From contig NZ_OY780939.1 in assembly GCF_963675975.1 (NCBI RefSeq), positions 186,001-250,000 on the forward strand: a stretch of DNA of 64,000 nt, given 5' to 3'. How positions within the stretch are numbered: position 1 is the stretch's first letter; every line of letters starts with the position of its first letter. Below are positions 24,899-36,025 of this stretch, piece after piece. This DNA is from Halarcobacter sp. GTDB lineage: Bacteria > Campylobacterota > Campylobacteria > Campylobacterales > Arcobacteraceae. Below the pieces are notes generated by a model. It saw only the letters and a list, made by a program, of their open reading frames with translations, was not told the DNA's origin and ran no database searches. Position numbers and translations under genes: made by a program.

Positions 24899-24942
24899 TA
24901 GCTTGAGTTTAGCCTGAATATAGCCTGAATATAGCGTTGATT
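24899..24942. promoter_or_regulatory. Four 11-bp-phased TAGC direct repeats (candidate regulator operator)
   Basis: Copies begin at 24899, 24910, 24921 and 24932. The middle two are identical (TAGCCTGAATA). The first (TAGCTTGAGTT) and fourth (TAGCGTTGATT) are degenerate. Spacing near one helical turn is what OmpR-type regulators need. The site lies 87 bases upstream of the aldehyde dehydrogenase start and 78 bases upstream of the FIST kinase start. Confidence 0.55.
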
Positions 24943-25019
24943 TTTTTGTTTCTAAAAGAGCCATTTTTAGCCATCTTTTAATAAAAACATCAATTATATT
25001 TTTTTTAAAAAAACTATTT

Positions 25020-26954
25020 ATGATACAATTTTGTATGAAAACTTTTAACTATAATATTAAAAATGGTATTGAAAATAGCAATATTAATCTAAACATCTTA
25101 AAAGATGAAAAAAATATATTAATACAAGTTTTTTGTGGTCAAGGTTTCGATGCTTTAAAAGATATTATAGAAAAACTTAAAAAAGAACTTCCCCAATCTA
25201 TTATTATTGGGACAACAACAGATGGAGAGATAAAAAATAATTCTATTACCACATCTAATACTATTGTTTCTATCTCGATTTTTCATAAAACTAAAATCAT
25301 AGCCTCTTATGTAGAAGAAGAAAACTCTTTTAAAAATGGTTTTAATCTTGCAAAAAATCTAATTACACATAATACTAAACTTCTAATACTTTTTACAGAT
25401 GGGACAACAACAAATGGAGAAAACTTTTTAAAAGGTGTAGAATCTTTTAGTAACACTACTCCCATTTGTGGAGGAATGGCTGGAGATAATGGAAAATTTA
25501 CCCAAACATTTATTTCATATCAAGACAAAATTTTAAAAAGTGGTGCAGTTGGAGTATCTTTAAATTCGGAACAATTAAAAATACATAATGATTATAGATT
25601 TAACTGGTCTCCTATTGGAATAGAACACACTATTGATAAAATTGAAGATAATAGGGTTTATAGTATAAATGGTATGTCTCCTGTCGAGTTTTATGCAAAA
25701 TATTTAGGGGAAGATGTAGCAATGGCACTTCCTGCAACAGGAATTGAGTTCCCACTTATTGTTGAAAAAGAGGGGATTCCTACAGCTAGAGCAGTTATAG
25801 CTAAACACAATGATGGAAGTGTAAGTTTTGCAGGAAATCTAAAAGAGGGAGATAAGGTAAAACTTGGTTTTGGAAATGCTGAGATGATTATGCAAAACCC
25901 TTTAGAGAGTCTAAACAGTTTTGGTTCAATGAAACCAGAAAGCTTTTTTTTATTTTCTTGTATGGCTAGAAGAAGATATATGCCTAGTTTTATCCAAGTA
26001 GAAGTTGAGCCTTTCGCAAGGATTGCTCCAACAACAGGATTTTTTACCTATGCTGAGTTTTATCATAATGGAACAAACAATCTTCTTTTAAATCAAACCT
26101 TAACAATAGTTGCACTTACAGAAGATTGTTCTAAAAATGATTTTCAAGAATTAAATTTGGAATCTAAAGAAACAAATGAACATGCTAGAACAATAAAAGC
26201 CTTAACACATCTTATACAACAATCAACAAAAGATTATGATAAACAAACTTCAAAATTAAATGAAGAAAAATTATATACACACAATCTATTAGCTGCGCAA
26301 AAACAGTTTTTAAGGCATACAATTCATGAAACAAATACTCCCTTATCTTCTATTATGTGGAATATTGAGCTACATGAAATGGAACTGGGAAAAAATAGAT
26401 ATTTATCAAATATTGAAGTTGCTATGAAAAATCTTTTTTCAATATATGATGATTTGAGCTATTTAGTAAAAAGAGACCAAATCAATTACACAAGTCAAAA
26501 AGTAGATTTAACTGATTATGTAAGAAGTCGAATTGACTTTTTCTCTCAAGTTGCATTAAAAGCAAACTCAAAATTGGTATTTGATAGTTCAAATAAACCA
26601 AGATTTATAAACTTCAATGAAACAAAACTTCAAAGAATTATAGACAATAATTTAACAAATGCTATAAAATATACCTTTGAAAATCAAGATATTCATATTA
26701 TACTTTATGGAGAAGATGATTTTTATAAATTACAATTTACAAGTCATTCAAGTGTAATCCAAGAGCCTCAAAAAATATTTGAAGAATACTATAGAGAAGA
26801 AAAACTAAAAGAGGGTTTTGGATTAGGTTTAAATTTGGTAAAAAAAATTTGTGATGAAGAAGATGTAAAAATAAAGCTTGAATCAAATAGCCATTTTACA
26901 ACTTTTTCATACTACTTTAAAAAGGAAAATAAAGATGAAAATTCTATTACTTGA
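25020..26954 (+). CDS. FIST-domain sensor histidine kinase
   Basis: 644 residues. FIST_N (about 25-215, with IIIGTTTDGEI, LFTDGTTTNGEN and GGMAGDNGKF) and FIST_C (about 220-365, with YAKYLGEDVA and FLFSCMARRRY) are followed by a short coiled coil and a kinase core with phosphoacceptor His436 in HTIHETNTPLSS. The ATPase part has DNNLTNAIKYTF and GFGLGLNLVKK. No membrane span, so it is a cytoplasmic sensor. FIST domains are thought to bind small ligands such as amino acids. The start is uncertain: neither the ATG at 25020 nor that at 25035 has a ribosome binding site, and a TATGATACAAT stretch overlaps them. The regulator gene overlaps its end. Confidence 0.9.
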   Translation: MIQFCMKTFNYNIKNGIENSNINLNILKDEKNILIQVFCGQGFDALKDIIEKLKKELPQSIIIGTTTDGEIKNNSITTSNTIVSISIFHKTKIIASYVEEENSFKNGFNLAKNLITHNTKLLILFTDGTTTNGENFLKGVESFSNTTPICGGMAGDNGKFTQTFISYQDKILKSGAVGVSLNSEQLKIHNDYRFNWSPIGIEHTIDKIEDNRVYSINGMSPVEFYAKYLGEDVAMALPATGIEFPLIVEKEGIPTARAVIAKHNDGSVSFAGNLKEGDKVKLGFGNAEMIMQNPLESLNSFGSMKPESFFLFSCMARRRYMPSFIQVEVEPFARIAPTTGFFTYAEFYHNGTNNLLLNQTLTIVALTEDCSKNDFQELNLESKETNEHARTIKALTHLIQQSTKDYDKQTSKLNEEKLYTHNLLAAQKQFLRHTIHETNTPLSSIMWNIELHEMELGKNRYLSNIEVAMKNLFSIYDDLSYLVKRDQINYTSQKVDLTDYVRSRIDFFSQVALKANSKLVFDSSNKPRFINFNETKLQRIIDNNLTNAIKYTFENQDIHIILYGEDDFYKLQFTSHSSVIQEPQKIFEEYYREEKLKEGFGLGLNLVKKICDEEDVKIKLESNSHFTTFSYYFKKENKDENSIT

Positions 26955-27594
26955 AGATGATTTGATGTTAAATGATGCAATAAATCAATACTTAACATCA
27001 GTGGGACATCAAATTGTATCCTCAAAAGATGGAAAGACTTGCCTTGAAATATTAGAGCATGAAAAATTTGATATGTTGATATTGGATATTAACCTTCCAG
27101 ATATTAATGGTTTTACAATTTTAGAAGAGCTTCATAAACAAAAAAGAACTATCCCTACTATATTTATCTCTGCACTTTTAGATATAGAAGATATTTCAAG
27201 AGCCTTTGATATTGGTTGCCACGATTACTTAAAAAAACCCTTTCATCTAAAAGAACTAAATCTTCGAATAAATAAAATTCTAAAATCTTCAATAGTACCA
27301 CAAAACCATAAGAGATTATCAAAACAATACAGTTTTGACCATGATAATATGACACTTTATTTTAATAATGAACCTCATATCTTACCAAAAAGACAACTTA
27401 TGATAATCTCACTATTATCTAAAAATAGAAGTCTAGTTGTAAATTATGATATGTTTAGAGAATATGCTTATGATGGAGATGATATAGATACAGCTACCAT
27501 AAGAGCTGAAGTAAATAGAGTAAAAAAAGTTCTAAAAGAAGACTTTATTATAAATATAAGAGGTATCGGTTATATGGTAGAAAGGCCAAATTAA
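26935..27594 (+). CDS. OmpR-family response regulator partner of the FIST kinase
   Basis: 219 residues from the ATG at 26935 (MKILLLEDD), chosen for AAGGA upstream; it overlaps the kinase end by 20 bases. Receiver residues are complete: E/D pair in LLEDDL, Asp in MLILDINLP, Ser in FISAL and Lys in YLKKPF. A winged-helix output domain follows (LPKRQLMIISLL to INIRGIGYMVE). Likely acts on the phased repeats upstream of its own operon and of the aldehyde dehydrogenase. Confidence 0.92.
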   Translation: MKILLLEDDLMLNDAINQYLTSVGHQIVSSKDGKTCLEILEHEKFDMLILDINLPDINGFTILEELHKQKRTIPTIFISALLDIEDISRAFDIGCHDYLKKPFHLKELNLRINKILKSSIVPQNHKRLSKQYSFDHDNMTLYFNNEPHILPKRQLMIISLLSKNRSLVVNYDMFREYAYDGDDIDTATIRAEVNRVKKVLKEDFIINIRGIGYMVERPN

Positions 27595-27978
27595 ATTACA
27601 CTATAGGTAATTCTATAAAAAATTTTATCTAATTATAGATGAAAAATATTAATAACCACAAATAGCATTTTTCTAAATCAAATATTCTGAAAAGTTGTAA
27701 GATGAATTTTTTTTGGAACATAATTAGAACAATTAAACGAACGTTTTTACACATCAAATACTGACTATAAAACCCCACCTTTTTTCTATACTATATCTGT
27801 ACAAAAAAATTAAATAAATGGGTTTTTATAGACATTTAGTAAAAAAAGAGACTATTTAGAGTTTTATATCAATAGAAAAAAGTTCTAGTTATACCATCAT
27901 GAGATTTTTCTACTGCTCCAAATATTACAGGTTGTGGAACTTATTTTGATGTTTCATTTGATATTAAGGAATCATCTA
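27595..27978. other. Gene-poor region at the left edge of the XpaC/TelA cluster
   Basis: 384 bp without a convincing gene. It holds TTTGGAACATAAT at 27712-27724, repeated exactly at 33397-33409. A short stop-broken peptide on the minus strand (27911-27960, VPQPVIFGAVEKSHDG) may be a gene remnant; I cannot identify it. Confidence 0.5.
27712..27724. repeat. Left copy of the 13-bp direct repeat
   Basis: TTTGGAACATAAT, identical to the copy at 33397-33409 on the other side of the XpaC/TelA operon. Confidence 0.4.
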
Positions 27979-30147
27979 TTAATTTTTCACTTGATGGTTT
28001 AATTTTGTTTTTATTTCATTTTCTAAATATGAAATTGTTTTTTGTTCTTTTTTTATATCATTGTATAATTCGTTTGACTTGTTATAATATTCTTTTACAA
28101 AATCTTTTTGTTCAACTTTACAGTCTATTTTAAAAAGACCCCAAGTTTTTTTAATTGAAAAAACATTATGCTTAATATCTTCTAATTGAGATTTTCTAAT
28201 TTTTAAATTCTTCCTTATTCTATCTACTTTGGAAGTATCATTTAAGTAATTATTTGCATTAATAGAGTTAATATTTTTTGACATTTTATCAATATAAAGT
28301 TTCTCTTTTTTAAACAGTTTCATTAATGAATTATGTTCTTCTAGTGTTGAATTAATGAGTTTATTATTACAAATATTAAATTCTTCAACATTTCTTATTT
28401 TATCTAAAAAAACAGATAACTCTTTTGTTGGTGTATTTTTCATTATTAACTTATCATAGATTAAATTCATTGTCTTACCATCTGAAATAACCCTACATGA
28501 TGATTTTATATTTAATTCTTTCTTTTTCTTTTCACATAACTTTTTTGCATCATTATGAGCAGTATTTAAACTATTTTCATTGTATGTCAAAGCATAAGTA
28601 TATTCGTTTGGTCCATCAATTGCTACAGCAAAAGATTTGAAATGTGGTTTTTTAAAAAATTTTTCTAATTGAGTTTCAATTTCATGAGTAACTTTAAAAG
28701 TATCTTTTTTTTCTTCACTCTTTTCCTTTTTTATGTCTTCCTTATTTAAATTTTCATTTTCTTTATTAGTCTTTCTTTCTAGTAAATTATCAGCTGATTT
28801 TATTTCTTCTTTTTTTGTTTTATCACTTATATTTTTAAAAAAATCAAATATATTGTCTTTAGCATTAACAATTATATTTTGTGTATATTCAAATTTTAAA
28901 TTATTATTAGGCAATTTATATAATAATCCAATATTTTTAGTTCTTATTGGTTCATAAGTTATCCCATCTATAACAAATTTATCATCTTTGTAATCATAAA
29001 GAGCATTCCCACCCAAAAGCAATTCTCCTTTATCCATAGGTTCAGCAACCCTTAAAAAACTTTCTCTTCCAAATAAATAGAACTTATTTTTCTTTTTAAT
29101 ATTTCCATCACTATCAAATAGAATAAATTGATTGTTTATCTTATGGTTTTTGAATCTATCAGATATAGTAATAAGATATTCGTCTTTTCCCAATGGTTTA
29201 ATAAACCAAGAAAACAATGAACCTTTTTTTTTTAAATTTATCAGCTCTTTATTCCATATAATTTCACCATTAGAGGAAAATTTGAATATATGAATTGTTC
29301 TTTTACCAAACTTCTTTTTATTCTTATACATATAAACATTAGATAAAAAAGAACCATTTTCTAATTGAATCAAATCTATAAATTTACCAAAAAATTTACC
29401 GCTATAATCATGTTGCCAAATTAAGTTACCATCTTTATCAAATTTTATTATAAAAAAAGGATTTTCAGCAATTGCTAAATAATTATTATCTACAGTTTTT
29501 ATAACTTTCATAAATCTAATAGCCTTAGATTTATCCTTTTTTATTATTATCTCATTAGAAAGAAACTTTCTTAAATCTTTTTCTTTTATTACGTTATGTT
29601 TGTCTTCATATAATATTTCTTTATTCCATATCTCTTTTCCATTATTATCAAATTTGAAAATTTTATGTGTATCTTCAAATGTAAGAAAATCATTTACAAC
29701 ACCTATAAAGCCATCATCTGTAGAAACAATAGATTGAAGATTCTTATTATCAATTTTATTCGTAATTCTGTGAGTTTTTTTATCAATGATATTATCACCA
29801 ATAATATAACTATCTTTTAATTCTGCAGTAACAGTGTTTTTCCCACTAATAGTTTTTGTCCAGATTTCTTTTCCATGTTTATCAAGTTCTAGAATCTTAA
29901 TAGTATTATAAGAGTGTGATGATCTCCCTACAATTAGGTATCCGTTATTTACATTTTTTATTGATTCAATTAATGGCAAATTACTTACTATTGGACTTAT
30001 ATACCAAAGTGCATTTTTATTCTTATTTATAAGATTTATGTAAAACAAAAATGTTATCATTGTTAATAAGATAAATATAATTAATATAGTTTTCTTTACA
30101 AAATTATAGTTTGGATCTTTAATTTTATCGATATGAAAATATGTCAC
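27979..30147 (-). CDS. Membrane-anchored periplasmic beta-propeller protein with C-terminal helical region
   Basis: Not a named family I can assign. 722 residues, GTG start two bases after the previous stop. A basic N-terminus precedes one membrane span (about 18-40), predicting a periplasmic body. Residues about 45-445 show PQQ/WD-like blades: repeated IWNKE, LIWQHDY and GNIKKKN units after DNNGK- or DKDGN-like turns. A Lys/Glu-rich linker (about 450-490) follows. Residues about 505-565 form a compact domain (FAVAIDGPNEYTYALTY, then an AKKLCEKKKKEL helix and SSCRVIS) that resembles alanine/cysteine-type modules seen at the ends of other envelope proteins. The last 130 residues are coiled coil. 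Fourth gene of the XpaC/TelA operon. Confidence 0.7.
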   Translation of the reverse strand: MTYFHIDKIKDPNYNFVKKTILIIFILLTMITFLFYINLINKNKNALWYISPIVSNLPLIESIKNVNNGYLIVGRSSHSYNTIKILELDKHGKEIWTKTISGKNTVTAELKDSYIIGDNIIDKKTHRITNKIDNKNLQSIVSTDDGFIGVVNDFLTFEDTHKIFKFDNNGKEIWNKEILYEDKHNVIKEKDLRKFLSNEIIIKKDKSKAIRFMKVIKTVDNNYLAIAENPFFIIKFDKDGNLIWQHDYSGKFFGKFIDLIQLENGSFLSNVYMYKNKKKFGKRTIHIFKFSSNGEIIWNKELINLKKKGSLFSWFIKPLGKDEYLITISDRFKNHKINNQFILFDSDGNIKKKNKFYLFGRESFLRVAEPMDKGELLLGGNALYDYKDDKFVIDGITYEPIRTKNIGLLYKLPNNNLKFEYTQNIIVNAKDNIFDFFKNISDKTKKEEIKSADNLLERKTNKENENLNKEDIKKEKSEEKKDTFKVTHEIETQLEKFFKKPHFKSFAVAIDGPNEYTYALTYNENSLNTAHNDAKKLCEKKKKELNIKSSCRVISDGKTMNLIYDKLIMKNTPTKELSVFLDKIRNVEEFNICNNKLINSTLEEHNSLMKLFKKEKLYIDKMSKNINSINANNYLNDTSKVDRIRKNLKIRKSQLEDIKHNVFSIKKTWGLFKIDCKVEQKDFVKEYYNKSNELYNDIKKEQKTISYLENEIKTKLNHQVKN

Positions 30148-30149
30148 AT

Positions 30150-31328
30150 TTATTCTTTTTTTAGATTTATTTCTTTACTAAATACATAACTTTTGTGTTT
30201 ATACTTATTTTCATGAGAGAAATTTATATAAATATATTTATTATCAGGGGAAATAGCAAATTTATCAAATTTTTTAATTTTTAATTTAAACTTTTTAATT
30301 AATTTAGGATCTAATGGATAACTAATATCAACAACTTCTATTTCATAAAAATGCGCATTTCTATTTTTTTCATTATAACGTCCACCTAATAAAATTGCCT
30401 TAGTTCCATTATCGAAAATTTTTAGACCACGAACAAAATCATTATTTGAAGTATAACCTCCTAATGATCTTATGTTTTTAAAATCACTAATATCAAAAAA
30501 TTCAATATTATTTGAAACTGCTAAAATATAAATATGTAATTTATTAGGAGACAATATAATTTGTCTACCTCTAGCTAATGTACCTATATCAAAAATGGAT
30601 TTGATCTTAGATAAATCACTAACATCCAATAGATGTAATCCTTTTCTATCAAGTAAAAATACATAGTTATCATCATATACTTGTATATCTCCTAGGTCTA
30701 AAGGATAAGAGTTTTTCCCATTTGCTTGAATGTCTGCAATTGAGTTTGTAGAAATATATTCTCCAATAATAGGTGTAGATTCTAATGAAAGATCAACAAC
30801 ATACATACCCTTATCACTTCTAATAAAAGCCTTTTTTTCATCTTCTGTTAAAGAAATTTTTAGTGCTTCTTTTATCTTAATTATTTTTTCTAATTTTAAA
30901 TTAGATTTATCACTTATATCAAAACAATATAGACCTAAATAAGGACTTACAATGTAAAGTTTTTTCCCATCTTTGGTTTCTGTAACATCTATTTCAGATA
31001 CATAATTTTCTCTAATATTAGGAAAAAGAAAGGTACTTAATAATTTAATATTTTTAGTATCATGTATATCAAAGATACTAATACCAGATCTATCATGTCC
31101 ATAAACATATAAATATTTTTTGTCATTTGATAATTGCATTTTCCTAACATCAGAAAAATTTATTTCTATTGCATTAACATTTGATTTATCTATAATATTT
31201 TCACTATTTTTCCATTGATTTTGGTATTTAAGATAAAGAAAAATAAAAGGAGTTAAAACAACAATAATTACTAAAACTAAAGTTAACTCTTTTTTAAATA
31301 ATTCATTTGGGTCAGAATTTACTTTCAA
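30150..31328 (-). CDS. Membrane-anchored LVIVP-type beta-propeller protein
   Basis: 392 residues, TTG start three bases after the telA stop with GGAG upstream. One membrane span (about 15-33) after a KK pair predicts a periplasmic propeller. Blades repeat every 42-48 residues with the LVIVP pattern: ISIFDIHDTKNIKLLS, LYCFDISDKSNLKLE, LHLLDVSDLSKIKS and IEFFDISDFKNIRS. Such propellers usually bind ligands or proteins; no catalytic residues are seen. The N-terminal SDPNELFKKE recalls KDPNYNFVKK at the same place in the next gene. Third gene of the operon. Confidence 0.78.
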   Translation of the reverse strand: MKVNSDPNELFKKELTLVLVIIVVLTPFIFLYLKYQNQWKNSENIIDKSNVNAIEINFSDVRKMQLSNDKKYLYVYGHDRSGISIFDIHDTKNIKLLSTFLFPNIRENYVSEIDVTETKDGKKLYIVSPYLGLYCFDISDKSNLKLEKIIKIKEALKISLTEDEKKAFIRSDKGMYVVDLSLESTPIIGEYISTNSIADIQANGKNSYPLDLGDIQVYDDNYVFLLDRKGLHLLDVSDLSKIKSIFDIGTLARGRQIILSPNKLHIYILAVSNNIEFFDISDFKNIRSLGGYTSNNDFVRGLKIFDNGTKAILLGGRYNEKNRNAHFYEIEVVDISYPLDPKLIKKFKLKIKKFDKFAISPDNKYIYINFSHENKYKHKSYVFSKEINLKKE

Positions 31329-31331
31329 TGA

Positions 31332-32507
31332 TTAAATCTCCAGTGAAAAAGAGGCCTTAAATGATTCTGTTTGTTCAGCTTCTTTCATTTTTTCTTCTAG
31401 TTGATTAGTAATGTTTTTTAAAGTTCCTATTTCATCTTTAATTTTAATTATTGCATTTAATTTCGAAGAATTAATTTTTGAAATTGCTTCATCAATTTGA
31501 TTAAATGATTCTTTCAAAATATCAATATTTATTGTTCCTTTTCCTGCATTTATATATATTTCACTTGCTTGATCATTCATTCTTTTTGAATTACTTAAAA
31601 TTAAATCATTTGTCACATCTTTTGTTTTTTCAACTGCAGTGATTACGTTTTTCTGATTTTCAAGTGCAACTAGCATTGCAACTCCACTTTCAAGTGCTCT
31701 TTTAGTAACAATCCTAACATTTGATATATTATCTATTAGCTCCCAATTGGTATTGATTATTAAATCACTAGATAAAAACCCTTGCTGGGTTACTACTAAA
31801 ATTTCATATATACTTCTAGTCTTTTTGTGTAAATTCAAAAGTAGATTACTCTCATAAAAAACTCTATCCTCTTCTTTTAGTTTTAAAAGATTATCTTCAA
31901 TAGTTGAAATTACCTCTTCAAAGATAAATGCTTTTTTTTGTAGTTTTAGTGCAGTTTCACTATATCTTTTTTTATCATGTTGTAAAACAATATTGTCATC
32001 TTTTAGTAGTTGCTCTCCTTCTTCAAGATAATTTATTGTTTCTATGATAAGTTCTTTTGCAGATTTAAATTTCTTTAAATATCTGTCTATTGGCTTACCA
32101 ATAAAAGGAATAAGAGATAAAATCCCACTAGAATTAAGATTATATTTATGTGGATTAATATCAGATATCTCACTATTTAATTTTATTATTGTATTAGCGA
32201 TATTACTAGATTCACTATCTTTTATAGAATCTAATTGAGCTACTTTGGCCATTAAAAGTTCTGAAGAATTTTCTAAGTCTTTAATATCATCGATTAAAAT
32301 ATTTTCTAAAATTGTTCTAATCTCTTCTACATCTTTTTCTGAAATGAATTCTAAAAACTCTTTTGCTTTATTTTTAATTTTACTTTCATCTTCTTCATTT
32401 AAACTATCTTCAAAAACTTTATTTTGACTATTCTCAATTAAGTTTAGTGATTGGTTTTCTATTCCACTGATTAATAATTTTAGAGATTCATTTCTACTGT
32501 TTTGCAT
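31332..32507 (-). CDS. TelA-family protein (toxic anion resistance family)
   Basis: 391 residues, mostly alpha-helical and without membrane spans. The segment GILSLIPFIGKPIDRYLKKF and the later RIVTKRALESGVAMLVALENQK and KTKDVTNDLILSNSKRM stretches match the TelA family. TelA homologues are linked to tellurite and cell-envelope antibiotic tolerance; the biochemical role is unknown. AAGGA precedes the ATG. It follows the XpaC-like gene by nine bases, and XpaC-TelA pairs are a known gene neighbourhood. Confidence 0.82.
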   Translation of the reverse strand: MQNSRNESLKLLISGIENQSLNLIENSQNKVFEDSLNEEDESKIKNKAKEFLEFISEKDVEEIRTILENILIDDIKDLENSSELLMAKVAQLDSIKDSESSNIANTIIKLNSEISDINPHKYNLNSSGILSLIPFIGKPIDRYLKKFKSAKELIIETINYLEEGEQLLKDDNIVLQHDKKRYSETALKLQKKAFIFEEVISTIEDNLLKLKEEDRVFYESNLLLNLHKKTRSIYEILVVTQQGFLSSDLIINTNWELIDNISNVRIVTKRALESGVAMLVALENQKNVITAVEKTKDVTNDLILSNSKRMNDQASEIYINAGKGTINIDILKESFNQIDEAISKINSSKLNAIIKIKDEIGTLKNITNQLEEKMKEAEQTESFKASFSLEI

Positions 32508-32516
32508 TCGATTCCT

Positions 32517-33167
32517 TTATCTTTTAGATATATCTTTTAATATATTTAATGTATGTTCAAGTTCAGACTCAATAGATGAAACTTTTTCATCGTTTGTATT
32601 TTTTTCAGTTAATTCATGAATATAATTATCTAAATGATTTAAAATATTTTCATTTTGCATATTGTTTTTTTTAATCTCAGCTTCAATATTTTGAGCTTTA
32701 CTAAAATCATTGGTAAGTTTTAAACTGCTTTCTAAATTAATTAAGATATTTAAATTTTCTATATAAAGATTTAGAGTTTTATTAATTAGTAATAAAATAT
32801 TAATTGAAAAAAGCCCTTTTTCATTGAAATTGTTTTTAACAAATTCTTTAATAAATTCTATTTTTTTAAAAATGTTATTTTGTCTATTTAAGTTGTAGTC
32901 ATTAGTAATTTTTTCTTCAAAAATGTAAAACTTTTCTTTTTCTCTCTCTAATTGAAGTAACTTTGAATTTTTTATATAGGTTATAAAACTAACTATTAAC
33001 CATCCCAAACTTAAAACAAATAATAGATAGAAAAATTCTTTCTCAAACTCAGTAAGATCAAGAAAGTATAAAGCTAGAATGTAACTATAAAGTGAAGTAA
33101 AAACTAACAAACCTGAATAGTATAAGTATTTTTTCTTTCTAAAAAAGAAAATCATTTTTTCAAACAT
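32517..33167 (-). CDS. XpaC-like two-span membrane protein
   Basis: 216 residues: two membrane spans (about 13-33 and 42-63), then a cytoplasmic helical domain. The pattern LLLINKTLNLYIENLNILINLE followed by a helix hairpin and ending SIESELEHTLNILKDI resembles XpaC (PF10112), partner of TelA. The match is by helix and leucine pattern plus gene order, so it is tentative. First gene of the four-gene operon; only a weak ribosome binding site is visible. Confidence 0.6.
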   Translation of the reverse strand: MFEKMIFFFRKKKYLYYSGLLVFTSLYSYILALYFLDLTEFEKEFFYLLFVLSLGWLIVSFITYIKNSKLLQLEREKEKFYIFEEKITNDYNLNRQNNIFKKIEFIKEFVKNNFNEKGLFSINILLLINKTLNLYIENLNILINLESSLKLTNDFSKAQNIEAEIKKNNMQNENILNHLDNYIHELTEKNTNDEKVSSIESELEHTLNILKDISKR

Positions 33168-33649
33168 TTATTCTCTTAAATAATATTTTTATTAATATAT
33201 TATAACATTATAAAATTAAATAGATATTTCTTTTATAATTATTTTTGAAGAATTAAAAAGATAATAGTAAAAAAAATAGTGCGTAATATTTAACTTTGTT
33301 TGGCAAGAATATCTAAACTTGTAAATTCAGTAGCTATTAAATTATATTCTACCAACAAGGAATAGGATATAGAAACTTGTTACACAACCTCTAAAATTTG
33401 GAACATAATCACTTATATTAGTGTTCCATGTTCCACAAAGTGTTCAAAAAGTAAAAACTGAAAAATTTCATAAACCTTAAGGGGTTCTGGAACAAATAAA
33501 TTTGTTTTTTAGTTTGAAAATCTTACTTTCCAACTCAATAAATTTTTATTTACAAGTTAATATTTATTATAATAAAAAACATTATGTAACCCTCTAAAAA
33601 ATTAGGTCAATTTAAATCAGAATAATTAGCTCTCTAGTTGTACTGTTCA
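33168..33649. other. Gene-poor region upstream of the XpaC/TelA operon
   Basis: About 480 bp with stops in all frames. It must hold the operon promoter. It carries the right copy of TTTGGAACATAAT (33397-33409), and 33379-33408 resembles (about 22 of 30 bases) the inverse of 27911-27940. Together with the recombinase remnant it looks like decayed mobile DNA. Confidence 0.5.
33397..33409. repeat. Right copy of a 13-bp direct repeat flanking the XpaC/TelA cluster
   Basis: TTTGGAACATAAT, identical to 27712-27724. The two copies bracket the whole four-gene operon at 5.7 kb distance. Could be attachment-site remnants or coincidence in AT-rich DNA. Confidence 0.4.
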
Positions 33650-33835
33650 AATATTACTCATAAAACTTTATATCAAATGAAACATACATTTGTATCTATG
33701 ATGATATCAAGTGGAAAAGACATTCTATGAGTTGCATCAATGCTTGGTCATAAAAGTGCAAATATTACTTTACAAGTATATGCTAATTATGTAAATAGTG
33801 AAAAGATGACAAGAGGTTCTTTTTCACTAGATTAA
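33641..33835 (+). pseudogene. Decayed tyrosine recombinase (phage-type integrase) C-terminus
   Basis: A frame ending at the TAA at 33833-33835 translates to a clear integrase tail: THKTLYQMKHTFVSMMISSG, a TGA at 33728-33730 where Trp is expected, then VASMLGHKSANITLQVYANY. The catalytic His of HTF, the LGH box and the nucleophile Tyr (TLQVYANY) are recognisable. The Arg of the usual RHTF is Lys. The N-terminal two thirds are missing. It is a relic of a mobile element beside the XpaC/TelA cluster. Confidence 0.85.
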
Positions 33836-33905
33836 TTTGAACAATAGTAATTCAGTTTTGGGACAATTTGAATTTACAATACTTTCAAATTCCTATAAAT
33901 TAGGC

Positions 33906-33926
33906 TTAATTAATTAATTAATTAAT
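33906..33926. repeat. TTAA microsatellite at the end of the CHASE kinase gene
   Basis: About five tandem TTAA units. The kinase stop codon lies inside it, so slippage here could alter the C-terminus only slightly. Confidence 0.7.
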
Positions 33927-35872
33927 GGCAACTCAATATAAAATTTGGCTCCATTTTCTGTATTTTTAGCATATATATTGCCTTTTAGACTCTCATTTAT
34001 AATTCTATAACTCATATTTAACCCTAAACCTGTTCCCAAAGTTTGGTGTTTAGTTGTAAAATATGGTTCAAAAATGTGTGGCATAATTTTTTCAGGAATT
34101 CCACCTGCATTATCTTCAATAGTGATTACAATACCTTTGTTACTTGTATATGATTCTAATTTTATCCATGGATTTACTATTTCTTCTTCTAACAAAGCAT
34201 CTTTAGCATTATTAAAAATATTTAATAAAACCTGCTCTAATTGACCAATAATCAAATTAACTTCTGTTTTCTTTTCATAATTAATATTATCAATTAGGTA
34301 AATACCTTTTTCTTTTAAAGTTGCATCAATAATCATTTTTGATGCACTGATTCTATCTTCTAGATTTGTTTTTTCAACACTTTTTCTAACTCTTAAAAAA
34401 TCTCTAAAGGTATCAATAGTTTTTGATAAATGAAGAGTATAATCAACGATATTCCCTAATTTCTTATACACACTTTCATCATCAATAATATTTGCTTTTT
34501 TTTCAAAAATCAATCCACTTGCCAAAGAACTAATTGCACTTAAAGGTTGTCTCCATTGGTGGGCAATATTACCTATCATCTCTCCCATTGCAACCATTTT
34601 TGCATTTTGAAAATAGTCAACTTGTTTCTCTTCAAAAGTTTTTTTAGCTGTAATATCTTGTCTAATAGCTATAAATCCAACTAAAGATTTATTTTCATCA
34701 TACTCAGGAGATATCATAGAATTAACCCAAAAATCATGACCTGATTTAGCTACATTTTTAAGCTCACCTGTCCAAGTTTTGCCTGATTTTATTGTATTCC
34801 ACATATTTTCATAAAACTCACTTGAGTAATTAGATTCTTTTAATATACTATGAGTATTTCCCAATAATTCTTCTCTTGAGTATCCTGTCAAGTTACAATA
34901 TGCTTCACTAACTTCAGTAATAACTCCTTCGGTATCAGTTCTTGAATAAAGAACATAGTTACCTATTAAGTCAAGATTACTTTGTATTTTTTTAGTTTGC
35001 TCTTGAACCTTTTTTTCTAATAATAGATTTAGTTTTTCTAACTCTCTTGGTCTATTTAAGATTATAAATAAAAGATATCCAAGTAAAATAGAGATTAAAA
35101 TACTAACAGAATATAAAGTGAAAATTAAACTATTTGATAAATAAACTCCTGTATATTGTATATCTAAATACCAAGTTCCATTTGGTACCTTTAAACTTTT
35201 TGTATAAATTTTTTGTTCTGAAGAAAAACTCTTATTTCCATAAAAAATATCCATTTTTTCTGTATCTGGATGGATTCTTTTTAATCTAAAAATATACTTT
35301 TTTTCTTTTAATTCATTTATATTTGTATTTTTAATCAAATCATCTAAAATAATTAAAGCAGAAGCAAATCCCCAAAATTTATCATTTATATAAACAGGTT
35401 TTCTAGCAACAATCCCTACTCCACCTTGTAATAAAGTAAAAGGACCGGCTAAAGTTAGCTTATGACTTTTCTTAGTTAAAAATGCTTCTTTTTTTCTTGC
35501 ATCATCTTTAAATAGATCATGTCCAATAGCTTTTTCATTTCCTTTTAATGGATATATTTTTTCAACTACTGCATTGGGAGCTAATTGAAGGTTATTTACA
35601 CTTTTTAATTCAGATAAAAGCATCTTTGAAAAACTCTCAAAACTACTCATATCTCCATTTAGTATTTTTATATGTTCACCTAAAATTATTGCACTTTTTG
35701 TATTTCTTGAGATTGTTCTTTCTAAAACATTTGCTTGGGAACTAAGAACTTCTTTTGATAGGTTATCAATATTGCTTTCAATATTATAATTATTACTTTC
35801 TATTAGATTATGGCTTATATAAATTAGTATAATAGTTACTATAATAGAAATAATTTTTTCTTTTTTAAGCAT
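33914..35872 (-). CDS. CHASE-PAS sensor histidine kinase
   Basis: 652 residues. A first span (about 8-24) is followed by a periplasmic CHASE domain (about 35-235; AGPFTLLQGGVGIVARKPVY is the signature). A second span lies at about 247-270, then a coiled coil, a PAS domain (about 300-405, YSRTDTEGVITEVSEAYCNL to GFIAIRQDITAKK), the phosphoacceptor His in NIAHQWRQPLSA and an ATPase with NIFNNAKDAL and GTGLGLNMSYR. The HQWRQPL H-box is typical of this phylum. No regulator gene adjoins, so its partner is unknown. It reads toward the decayed integrase. Confidence 0.92.
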   Translation of the reverse strand: MLKKEKIISIIVTIILIYISHNLIESNNYNIESNIDNLSKEVLSSQANVLERTISRNTKSAIILGEHIKILNGDMSSFESFSKMLLSELKSVNNLQLAPNAVVEKIYPLKGNEKAIGHDLFKDDARKKEAFLTKKSHKLTLAGPFTLLQGGVGIVARKPVYINDKFWGFASALIILDDLIKNTNINELKEKKYIFRLKRIHPDTEKMDIFYGNKSFSSEQKIYTKSLKVPNGTWYLDIQYTGVYLSNSLIFTLYSVSILISILLGYLLFIILNRPRELEKLNLLLEKKVQEQTKKIQSNLDLIGNYVLYSRTDTEGVITEVSEAYCNLTGYSREELLGNTHSILKESNYSSEFYENMWNTIKSGKTWTGELKNVAKSGHDFWVNSMISPEYDENKSLVGFIAIRQDITAKKTFEEKQVDYFQNAKMVAMGEMIGNIAHQWRQPLSAISSLASGLIFEKKANIIDDESVYKKLGNIVDYTLHLSKTIDTFRDFLRVRKSVEKTNLEDRISASKMIIDATLKEKGIYLIDNINYEKKTEVNLIIGQLEQVLLNIFNNAKDALLEEEIVNPWIKLESYTSNKGIVITIEDNAGGIPEKIMPHIFEPYFTTKHQTLGTGLGLNMSYRIINESLKGNIYAKNTENGAKFYIELPLIN

Positions 35873-36025
35873 ATCAATTTTCCATTTATATATTTATTAT
35901 TTTTTCATTATATAAAAATATACTAAAAATACCTTTATACATTTAAAGTTTTTTTTATATTAAGTATTATTGTCTAATATAATGATATTTTTGTTAAAAT
36001 CTATAAAATAGAAAGGGTATTTATT

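What the first reader, a model, noticed from the sequence alone, without database searches (positions are those of the whole stretch)
27979..33167. Four-gene XpaC-like/TelA/two-propeller operon of unknown role
Seen: a tight minus-strand operon (gaps of 9, 3 and 2 bases) with a two-span XpaC-like protein, a TelA-family protein and two proteins each anchored by one N-terminal span with a periplasmic beta-propeller. Known: TelA and XpaC are neighbours in other bacteria and TelA is tied to tolerance of tellurite and envelope-active compounds, without a known mechanism. Inference: the cytoplasmic TelA and XpaC parts and two periplasmic propellers could form one trans-envelope complex, with the propellers sensing or binding something outside. 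I know of no description of this four-part set.
Basis: partly seen in the sequence, partly recalled or inferred. Interest (0 to 1): 0.72.

Follow-up and report, generated by a model that had tools for sequence, protein, structure and literature searches.

The report
Mobile TelA operon with periplasmic propellers
A small mobile gene set, found in scattered relatives of Campylobacter, pairs a TelA-type protein (a family linked to tolerance of toxic compounds) and a small membrane protein with two propeller-shaped proteins predicted to face the outside of the inner membrane; what it protects against is unknown.

Summary
The four tight minus-strand genes are real and are a recurring set. TelA is confirmed (PF05816, E 7.8e-36). 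The 392-aa protein is an LVIVD-type propeller. Residues 1-410 of the 722-aa protein belong to a second propeller family. The 216-aa protein is not XpaC by profile (0 of 7 homologues match PF10112). Among 397 Campylobacterota genomes the 216-aa family and full-length propeller 1 occur in the same seven, beside one TelA subfamily. A named-genome scan added two loci. In all 8 loci with enough flank, window included, a second propeller lies near the core: six homologous to the window's (two fused to propeller 1), two of YWTD type. Here the operon is cargo of a decayed ~6.3-kb integrated element, absent from two relatives' sites. Between two congeneric genomes TelA and the 216-aa protein are 97% identical, the propellers 66%. 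Best reading: a horizontally moving TelA-based envelope-protection complex with variable periplasmic recognition parts. Its target (toxicant, peptide or phage) is not shown. No such set was seen in the paper listings.

The parts
32517..33167 (-). 216-aa protein: two N-terminal membrane spans, then a ~150-aa tail, presumed cytoplasmic and helical (not modelled); own family, not XpaC by profile
   Evidence: found in 7 of 397 Campylobacterota genomes
31332..32507 (-). TelA-family protein (391 aa), no span, predicted all helical
   Evidence: PF05816 E 7.8e-36; low-confidence model, mean pLDDT 50.5
30150..31328 (-). Propeller 1: one N-terminal span plus LVIVD-type beta-propeller (392 aa)
   Evidence: 6 of 7 members match LVIVD at E <= 0.01
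27979..30147 (-). Propeller 2 protein (722 aa): span, beta-propeller to about residue 400, then linker, possible DUF4189-like segment (weak) and C-terminal helices
   Evidence: model, PDB matches; residues 1-410, E 1.4e-32; C-terminal part found no relative in the loci compared
27595..27625 (-). Left end of the insert: leftover copy of the histidine-kinase gene 3' end
   Evidence: L064 2912-2948 matches both window ends
33912..33948 (-). Right end of the insert: 3' end of the intact histidine-kinase gene
33662..33832 (+). Remnant of a tyrosine-integrase C-terminus, interrupted by a stop
   Evidence: intact homologue in L070 (PF00589 E 4.5e-22); the pieces alone match no Pfam family
33383..33497 (+). 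~115-bp dispersed non-coding element with inverted repeats
   Evidence: matches at E <= 0.001 in 43 of 104 family genomes, and in 6 plasmid records
33914..35872 (-). Right flank: CHASE/PAS histidine kinase, at whose 3' end the insert lies
26878..27594 (+). Left flank: response regulator, next to the kinase in L064 and L065, which lack the insert

Best explanation
A mobile, TelA-based envelope-protection module. Shown: four genes in a tight operon; TelA; a two-span protein that in 397 genomes was found only with this TelA subfamily; two single-span propeller proteins; recurrence of the 216-aa/TelA pair in 8 other loci; carriage on a decayed integrated element in this genome. Inferred: the two-span protein holds TelA against the inside of the inner membrane, the propellers stand in the periplasm and bind a ligand, an attacker or an envelope component, and binding makes or stabilises a TelA assembly under the membrane that limits damage or entry. 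The fast-changing propellers would set what is recognised, the conserved TelA core what is done about it.
For: Co-occurrence: 216-aa family in 7 of 397 genomes (E <= 0.001); full-length propeller 1 (E <= 2.1e-119; next best 3.7e-38) in the same 7; the genes adjoin each other there. Second propeller near the core in 8 of 8 loci with enough flank: homologous to the window's in window, L044, L045, L047, L049 and L062, YWTD-type in L046 and L048 (Ldl_recept_b above cut-off). The two propellers are one protein in L044 and L045. Predicted topology. L044 against L045: TelA 97.4% and 216-aa 96.8% identical, dN/dS about 0.05 and 0.10; fused propellers 66.3% and 0.32. Mobility: no insert in L064 and L065; operon G+C below its surroundings in the window (0.225 against about 0.286) and in 7 of 7 other loci measured. 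Literature, passages only: a Listeria telA disruption mutant was 4-fold more nisin- and 2-fold more tellurite-susceptible (reported in PMC12791056); PMC7824862 proposes that TelA forms sub-membrane structures that keep out phage or xenobiotics.
Against: No experiment. No interaction was predicted or tested. The TelA model is too poor to use. The Listeria result concerns a distant TelA with an XpaC-type partner. The propellers' higher synonymous divergence (dS 0.69 against 0.17-0.22) may mean recombination rather than selection for new binding. In the second pair compared, L046 and L048, synonymous sites were saturated and give no dN/dS.
Confidence: 0.5

Rival explanations
1. It is specifically an anti-phage (or anti-plasmid) defence system: the propellers recognise a phage part or its receptor at the inner membrane and TelA blocks DNA entry.
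For: Sporadic, horizontally moved, AT-rich cargo; the propellers differ most between relatives; the Ter/TelA proposal in a passage of PMC7824862, which also reports TelA in jumbo phages.
Against: No meaningful PADLOC-DB match for the four proteins (only one at E <= 1, gop at 0.34). A test whether genes beside the dispersed element are richer in defence genes than genes five places away was inconclusive: both sets matched defence models. The window's TelA found no phage record at E <= 1e-5, and its alignment no relative in viral contigs.
Confidence: 0.2
2. A constitutive envelope-organising scaffold (membrane domains, or lipoprotein and outer-membrane traffic) rather than a stress or defence device; the propellers bind an envelope protein, as BamB-type propellers do.
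For: Propeller 2 has a weak PQQ_2/BamB match (E 0.0036, 17.4 bits against a cut-off of 27.6); in L060 another Campylobacterota TelA sits by an SPFH/Band 7 protein.
Against: Sporadic presence (7 of 397 genomes; 1 of 104 in the family) argues against a housekeeping role.
Confidence: 0.15
3. The set is decaying passenger DNA in this genome, with no present role.
For: The element around it keeps only a broken piece of its integrase.
Against: All four reading frames are intact, and the homologous genes are under purifying selection in the one pair where this could be measured (dN/dS 0.05-0.32).
Confidence: 0.1

Closest known systems
TelA (PF05816) with XpaC partner in Firmicutes (Listeria lmo1966-1967, Lactococcus llmg_1115-1116; passages)
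   Same: TelA next to a small membrane protein with two spans and a helical tail (the XpaC layout is recalled)
   Different: The 216-aa protein has no profile match to XpaC (PF10112); two anchored propellers are added
Ter/TelA systems (TerC, TerD, TerF, TelA) as described in PMC7824862 (passage)
   Same: TelA, proposed to work under the membrane against invaders or xenobiotics
   Different: Apart from TelA no Ter family matched the 7 window proteins scanned; the rest of the genome was not tested
TelA locus on Vibrio plasmid pSEA2 (L039)
   Same: A 257-aa two-span protein directly before TelA, with OmpA-type, solute-binding-type and VWA proteins around
   Different: No profile match of the 257-aa protein to the 216-aa family (hhalign probability 0.2); binding proteins instead of propellers
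LVIVD-type propeller proteins (PF08309)
   Same: Propeller 1 repeats match LVIVD
   Different: Here membrane-anchored and tied to TelA

Membership tests
TelA (PF05816) | Match above the curated cut-off over most of the profile | tested here: met
   124.2 bits against 30; profile 33-331 of 332
XpaC / Halogen_Hydrol (PF10112) | Profile match of the 216-aa protein | tested here: not met
   PF10112 is not among the matches at E <= 1 of any of 7 homologues scanned; no match in the whole genome at E <= 0.001, while the control search rings in Lactococcus lactis. The homologues of L062 and L063 were not scanned, and no profile-profile comparison with XpaC was made
XpaC / Halogen_Hydrol (PF10112) | Two N-terminal spans and a gene beside telA (layout recalled) | tested here: met
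   Spans 18-36 and 45-63 in the window's protein, the only member run; directly before telA in 9 of 9 loci
LVIVD beta-propeller (propeller 1) | LVIVD repeat above cut-off | tested here: met
   25.5 bits against 20.2; 6 of 7 members at E <= 0.01
Beta-propeller (722-aa N-terminal half) | Propeller fold | tested here: met
   Model from a 2-sequence alignment, block pLDDT mostly 70-89 in 61-180 and 211-300 with dips; PDB matches: CylK (E 1.8e-10, TM over target 0.28-0.35), NHL domains and BtuG-type lipoproteins (E about 1e-8 to 1e-7, TM over target about 0.5); that these are propellers is recalled
Known defence system in PADLOC-DB 2.0.0 | Match of any of the four proteins | tested here: not met
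   One match at E <= 1, gop at 0.34
Ter system | TerC, TerD or signal-synthesis genes in the operon or next to it | tested here: not met
   None among the four operon proteins and three flanking kinase/regulator proteins scanned; rest of the genome not tested
Integrative element | Empty site in relatives, duplicated target, recombinase | tested here: met
   the recombinase is only a remnant

The most novel reading that the evidence does not exclude
A mobile trans-envelope surveillance system: interchangeable, fast-changing periplasmic propellers (LVIVD plus a second, PQQ-like or YWTD type) recognise an invader or poison and trigger a conserved sub-membrane TelA core held by a dedicated two-span protein; it would be a TelA machine with a definable outside sensor.
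Probability: 0.2. Interest if true: 0.8.

Novelty: new variant of a known kind. Interest (0 to 1): 0.52.

Why it matters
TelA is widespread and its mechanism is unknown. A compact set with a dedicated membrane partner and outward-facing, variable propellers gives a way to ask what TelA responds to and how it sits at the membrane. The fusion of the two propellers in two genomes and a YWTD type in place of propeller 2 in two others give natural tests of which part is the sensor.

Tried and rejected
Single-protein search of genome contigs with propeller 1 found nothing; the TelA alignment found three loci, and none in viral contigs. TelA found no phage record and 11 plasmid records, identity 23-28%; the 722-aa protein found no plasmid. 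Sequence searches of solved structures: TelA, four weak matches, best E 0.01 to SIR4; 216-aa family, none at E <= 1; propeller 1, six at E <= 0.1, best 5.6e-4, YncE among them. The TelA model (pLDDT 50.5, pTM 0.31) was too poor and was not searched. XpaC identity was rejected. Promoter-like sites 56 against 54.6 expected, terminator-like 1 against 0.6 expected, so nothing distinctive. No Rfam match in the window.

I tested whether the ~115-bp element beside the operon marks defence genes: nearest ORFs (107 proteins from 55 loci, window left out) against the fifth ORFs away (84 proteins) in PADLOC at E <= 1e-8. Both sets matched defence models (near: Upx, PDC-M01B, PDC-S68, PsyrT and others; far: type II methyltransferase, DrmMII, mad8 in 3 members and others). 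The output shows only 25 of 69 and 25 of 91 families, so proteins with a hit could not be counted. Inconclusive. phmmer with single propeller queries missed the L062 propellers; profiles found both (search size set to 3000). E-values are for a set of 16 sequences.

Literature, judged from listings: (TelA with XpaC) 19 papers, by their titles most use the letters in another sense; (toxic anion resistance with propeller) 1, on vaults; (with LVIVD) 0; capped listings (15 of 19; 12 of 23; 12 of 22; 12 of 37; 12 of 51) show no title or abstract start on such a set, and the papers were not read. One search, on integrases and kinase genes in Arcobacter, 0. Only passages of PMC7824862, PMC12791056 and PMC3139573 were seen; PMC2976142 is not held.
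Full report
What is there. Four minus-strand genes follow each other with gaps of 9, 3 and 2 bases: a 216-aa two-span protein, TelA, a 392-aa single-span propeller protein and a 722-aa single-span protein (spans by hydropathy). TelA is certain (PF05816, E 7.8e-36). The 392-aa protein matches LVIVD repeats, as do 6 of 7 family members scanned. For the 722-aa protein, a profile built from four other loci without it matches residues 1-410 at E 1.4e-32. Its AlphaFold model (2-sequence alignment, mean pLDDT 58.6) shows a span, a strand-rich region to about residue 400 and mostly helical parts after it; Foldseek's best PDB matches are CylK, NHL domains and BtuG-type lipoproteins, propellers by recall. 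The last ~310 residues found no relative in the loci compared; a DUF4189 match there is below cut-off (E 0.14).

The 216-aa protein. PF10112 (XpaC) is not among the matches at E <= 1 of any of 7 homologues scanned, and finds nothing in the whole genome at E <= 0.001, while the control finds it in Lactococcus lactis. The protein forms its own family with the layout recalled for XpaC: two spans, then a tail presumed helical (not modelled).

Recurrence. In the window's own family, the window's genome alone, of 104, has this TelA, propeller 2 and full-length propeller 1 (propeller 1 gave weak partial matches in 3 others). The family is Arcobacteraceae: G012 contig 2 has the length of Aliarcobacter faecis plasmid pAFAEC and the element at the same coordinates. 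In 397 Campylobacterota genomes PF05816 matches 46 (36 over its cut-off). I read 20 of those neighbourhoods, from 19 genomes, and not the rest. Among them six TelA proteins (L044-L049) are much closer to the window's (E 1e-90 or better; next 1e-33), 45-55% identical. Whole-genome searches over all 397 then found the 216-aa family in exactly these seven, window included (E <= 0.001), and full-length propeller 1 in the same seven (E <= 2.1e-119); 17 other genomes have weaker propeller matches at E <= 1e-10, best 3.7e-38. So nine distinct loci, window included, carry the 216-aa gene directly before TelA.

Propellers in those loci. The L063 contig ends 372 bases before the 216-aa gene; no propeller was found in the part held, so it is uninformative on that side. 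In the other eight, propeller 1 is beside the core (L062 by profile at E 1.7e-31). A second propeller is homologous to the window's in six: window, L044, L045, L047, L049 and L062 (E 4.8e-10 without and 3.1e-15 with the window's protein in the profile). The weakest direct pair is window against L049 (E 0.001 one way, 8.7e-9 the other, in a set of 16 sequences). In L044 and L045 it is fused behind propeller 1. In L046 and L048 propeller 1 is divergent and a YWTD-type (Ldl_recept_b) propeller protein lies after TelA, directly in L048 and second in L046. Gene order varies while the set stays together.

Mobility. Window 24901-27625 and 33912-36000 align to adjoining parts of L064 that overlap by 37 bases, and to adjoining parts of L065 likewise, so both lack the insert. 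In L066 only the left flank was found, so it says nothing. The insert is about 6.29 kb. Its left end keeps a copy of the 3' end of the kinase gene that is intact on the right (28 of 37 columns alike, two gaps, in AT-rich DNA). A stop-broken integrase C-terminus lies at 33662-33832; its pieces match no Pfam family alone, and it was identified through an intact homologue in L070 (PF00589 E 4.5e-22). The operon's G+C is 0.225 against about 0.286 on either side, and lower than its surroundings in 7 of 7 other loci measured. L053, of the same genus as L044 and L045, keeps the outer flanks but holds other genes between them.

Evolution. Between L044 and L045, TelA is 97.4% and the 216-aa protein 96.8% identical, the fused propellers 66.3% (dN/dS 0.05, 0.10, 0.32). 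Along the fusion, blocks of 100 codons are 82-91% identical in the first 300 and 44-66% after. Synonymous divergence rises too, so recombination may explain part of it. Between L046 and L048 the ranking is the same: TelA 81%, 216-aa 58%, propeller 1 50%, but synonymous sites are saturated.

Reading. Linkage, fusions and predicted topology favour one complex across the inner membrane: TelA held by the two-span protein inside, propellers outside. From the TelA literature (passages of PMC12791056 and PMC7824862) the likeliest job is protection of the envelope against toxic compounds or invaders; which of these is open. Nothing here shows a phenotype or a contact between the proteins. Membership: TelA yes; XpaC no; PADLOC-listed defence no. 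That it works like a TelA envelope-tolerance device I hold at about even odds.

Noticed in passing
window 33662-33948; L070 600-3163; L071 1-2665; L073 1501-3192: The integrase clade of the remnant seems to use the 3' end of histidine-kinase genes as its target: homologous integrases or remnants abut a kinase gene end in 3 of the 4 best family matches looked at (L070, L071, L073; not L072) and in the window. The kinase is Pfam-confirmed in L070 and the window, judged by eye in L071 and L073.
   Followed up: partly
window 33383-33497; second copy at G000:C1:896125-896239: A sharply bounded ~115-bp non-coding element with two inverted repeats, matched at E <= 0.001 in 43 of 104 family genomes and in 6 Campylobacterota plasmid records. 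In 56 loci looked at it lies mostly between convergent genes (left neighbour forward in 41 of 54, right neighbour reverse in 40 of 56); the nearest right gene is integrase-like in 7 of 56, two of them the reference integrases themselves. Recombination site or small mobile element; sequence is conserved more than pairing covaries.
   Followed up: partly
L039 4965-12842 (Vibrio alfacsensis pSEA2): A TelA gene cluster with a two-span 257-aa protein, OmpA-type and solute-binding-type proteins and a VWA protein: perhaps the same logic of TelA with outward-facing binding parts.
   Followed up: partly
L044 10889-11956, L045 12636-13709, L053 7461-8528: A second, different TelA gene lies near the set in L044 and L045, and is also present in L053, which lacks the set.
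   Followed up: no
L063 2352-6668: Four look-alike ~250-aa proteins (judged by eye) with a 329-aa gene between them, just after TelA.
   Followed up: no
L048 6222-7877: The YWTD propeller protein has a CxxCH haem-binding motif near its end (motif recalled; sequence).
   Followed up: no
window 25020-26954: A histidine kinase with FIST_N and FIST_C domains in front of the kinase core.
   Followed up: no
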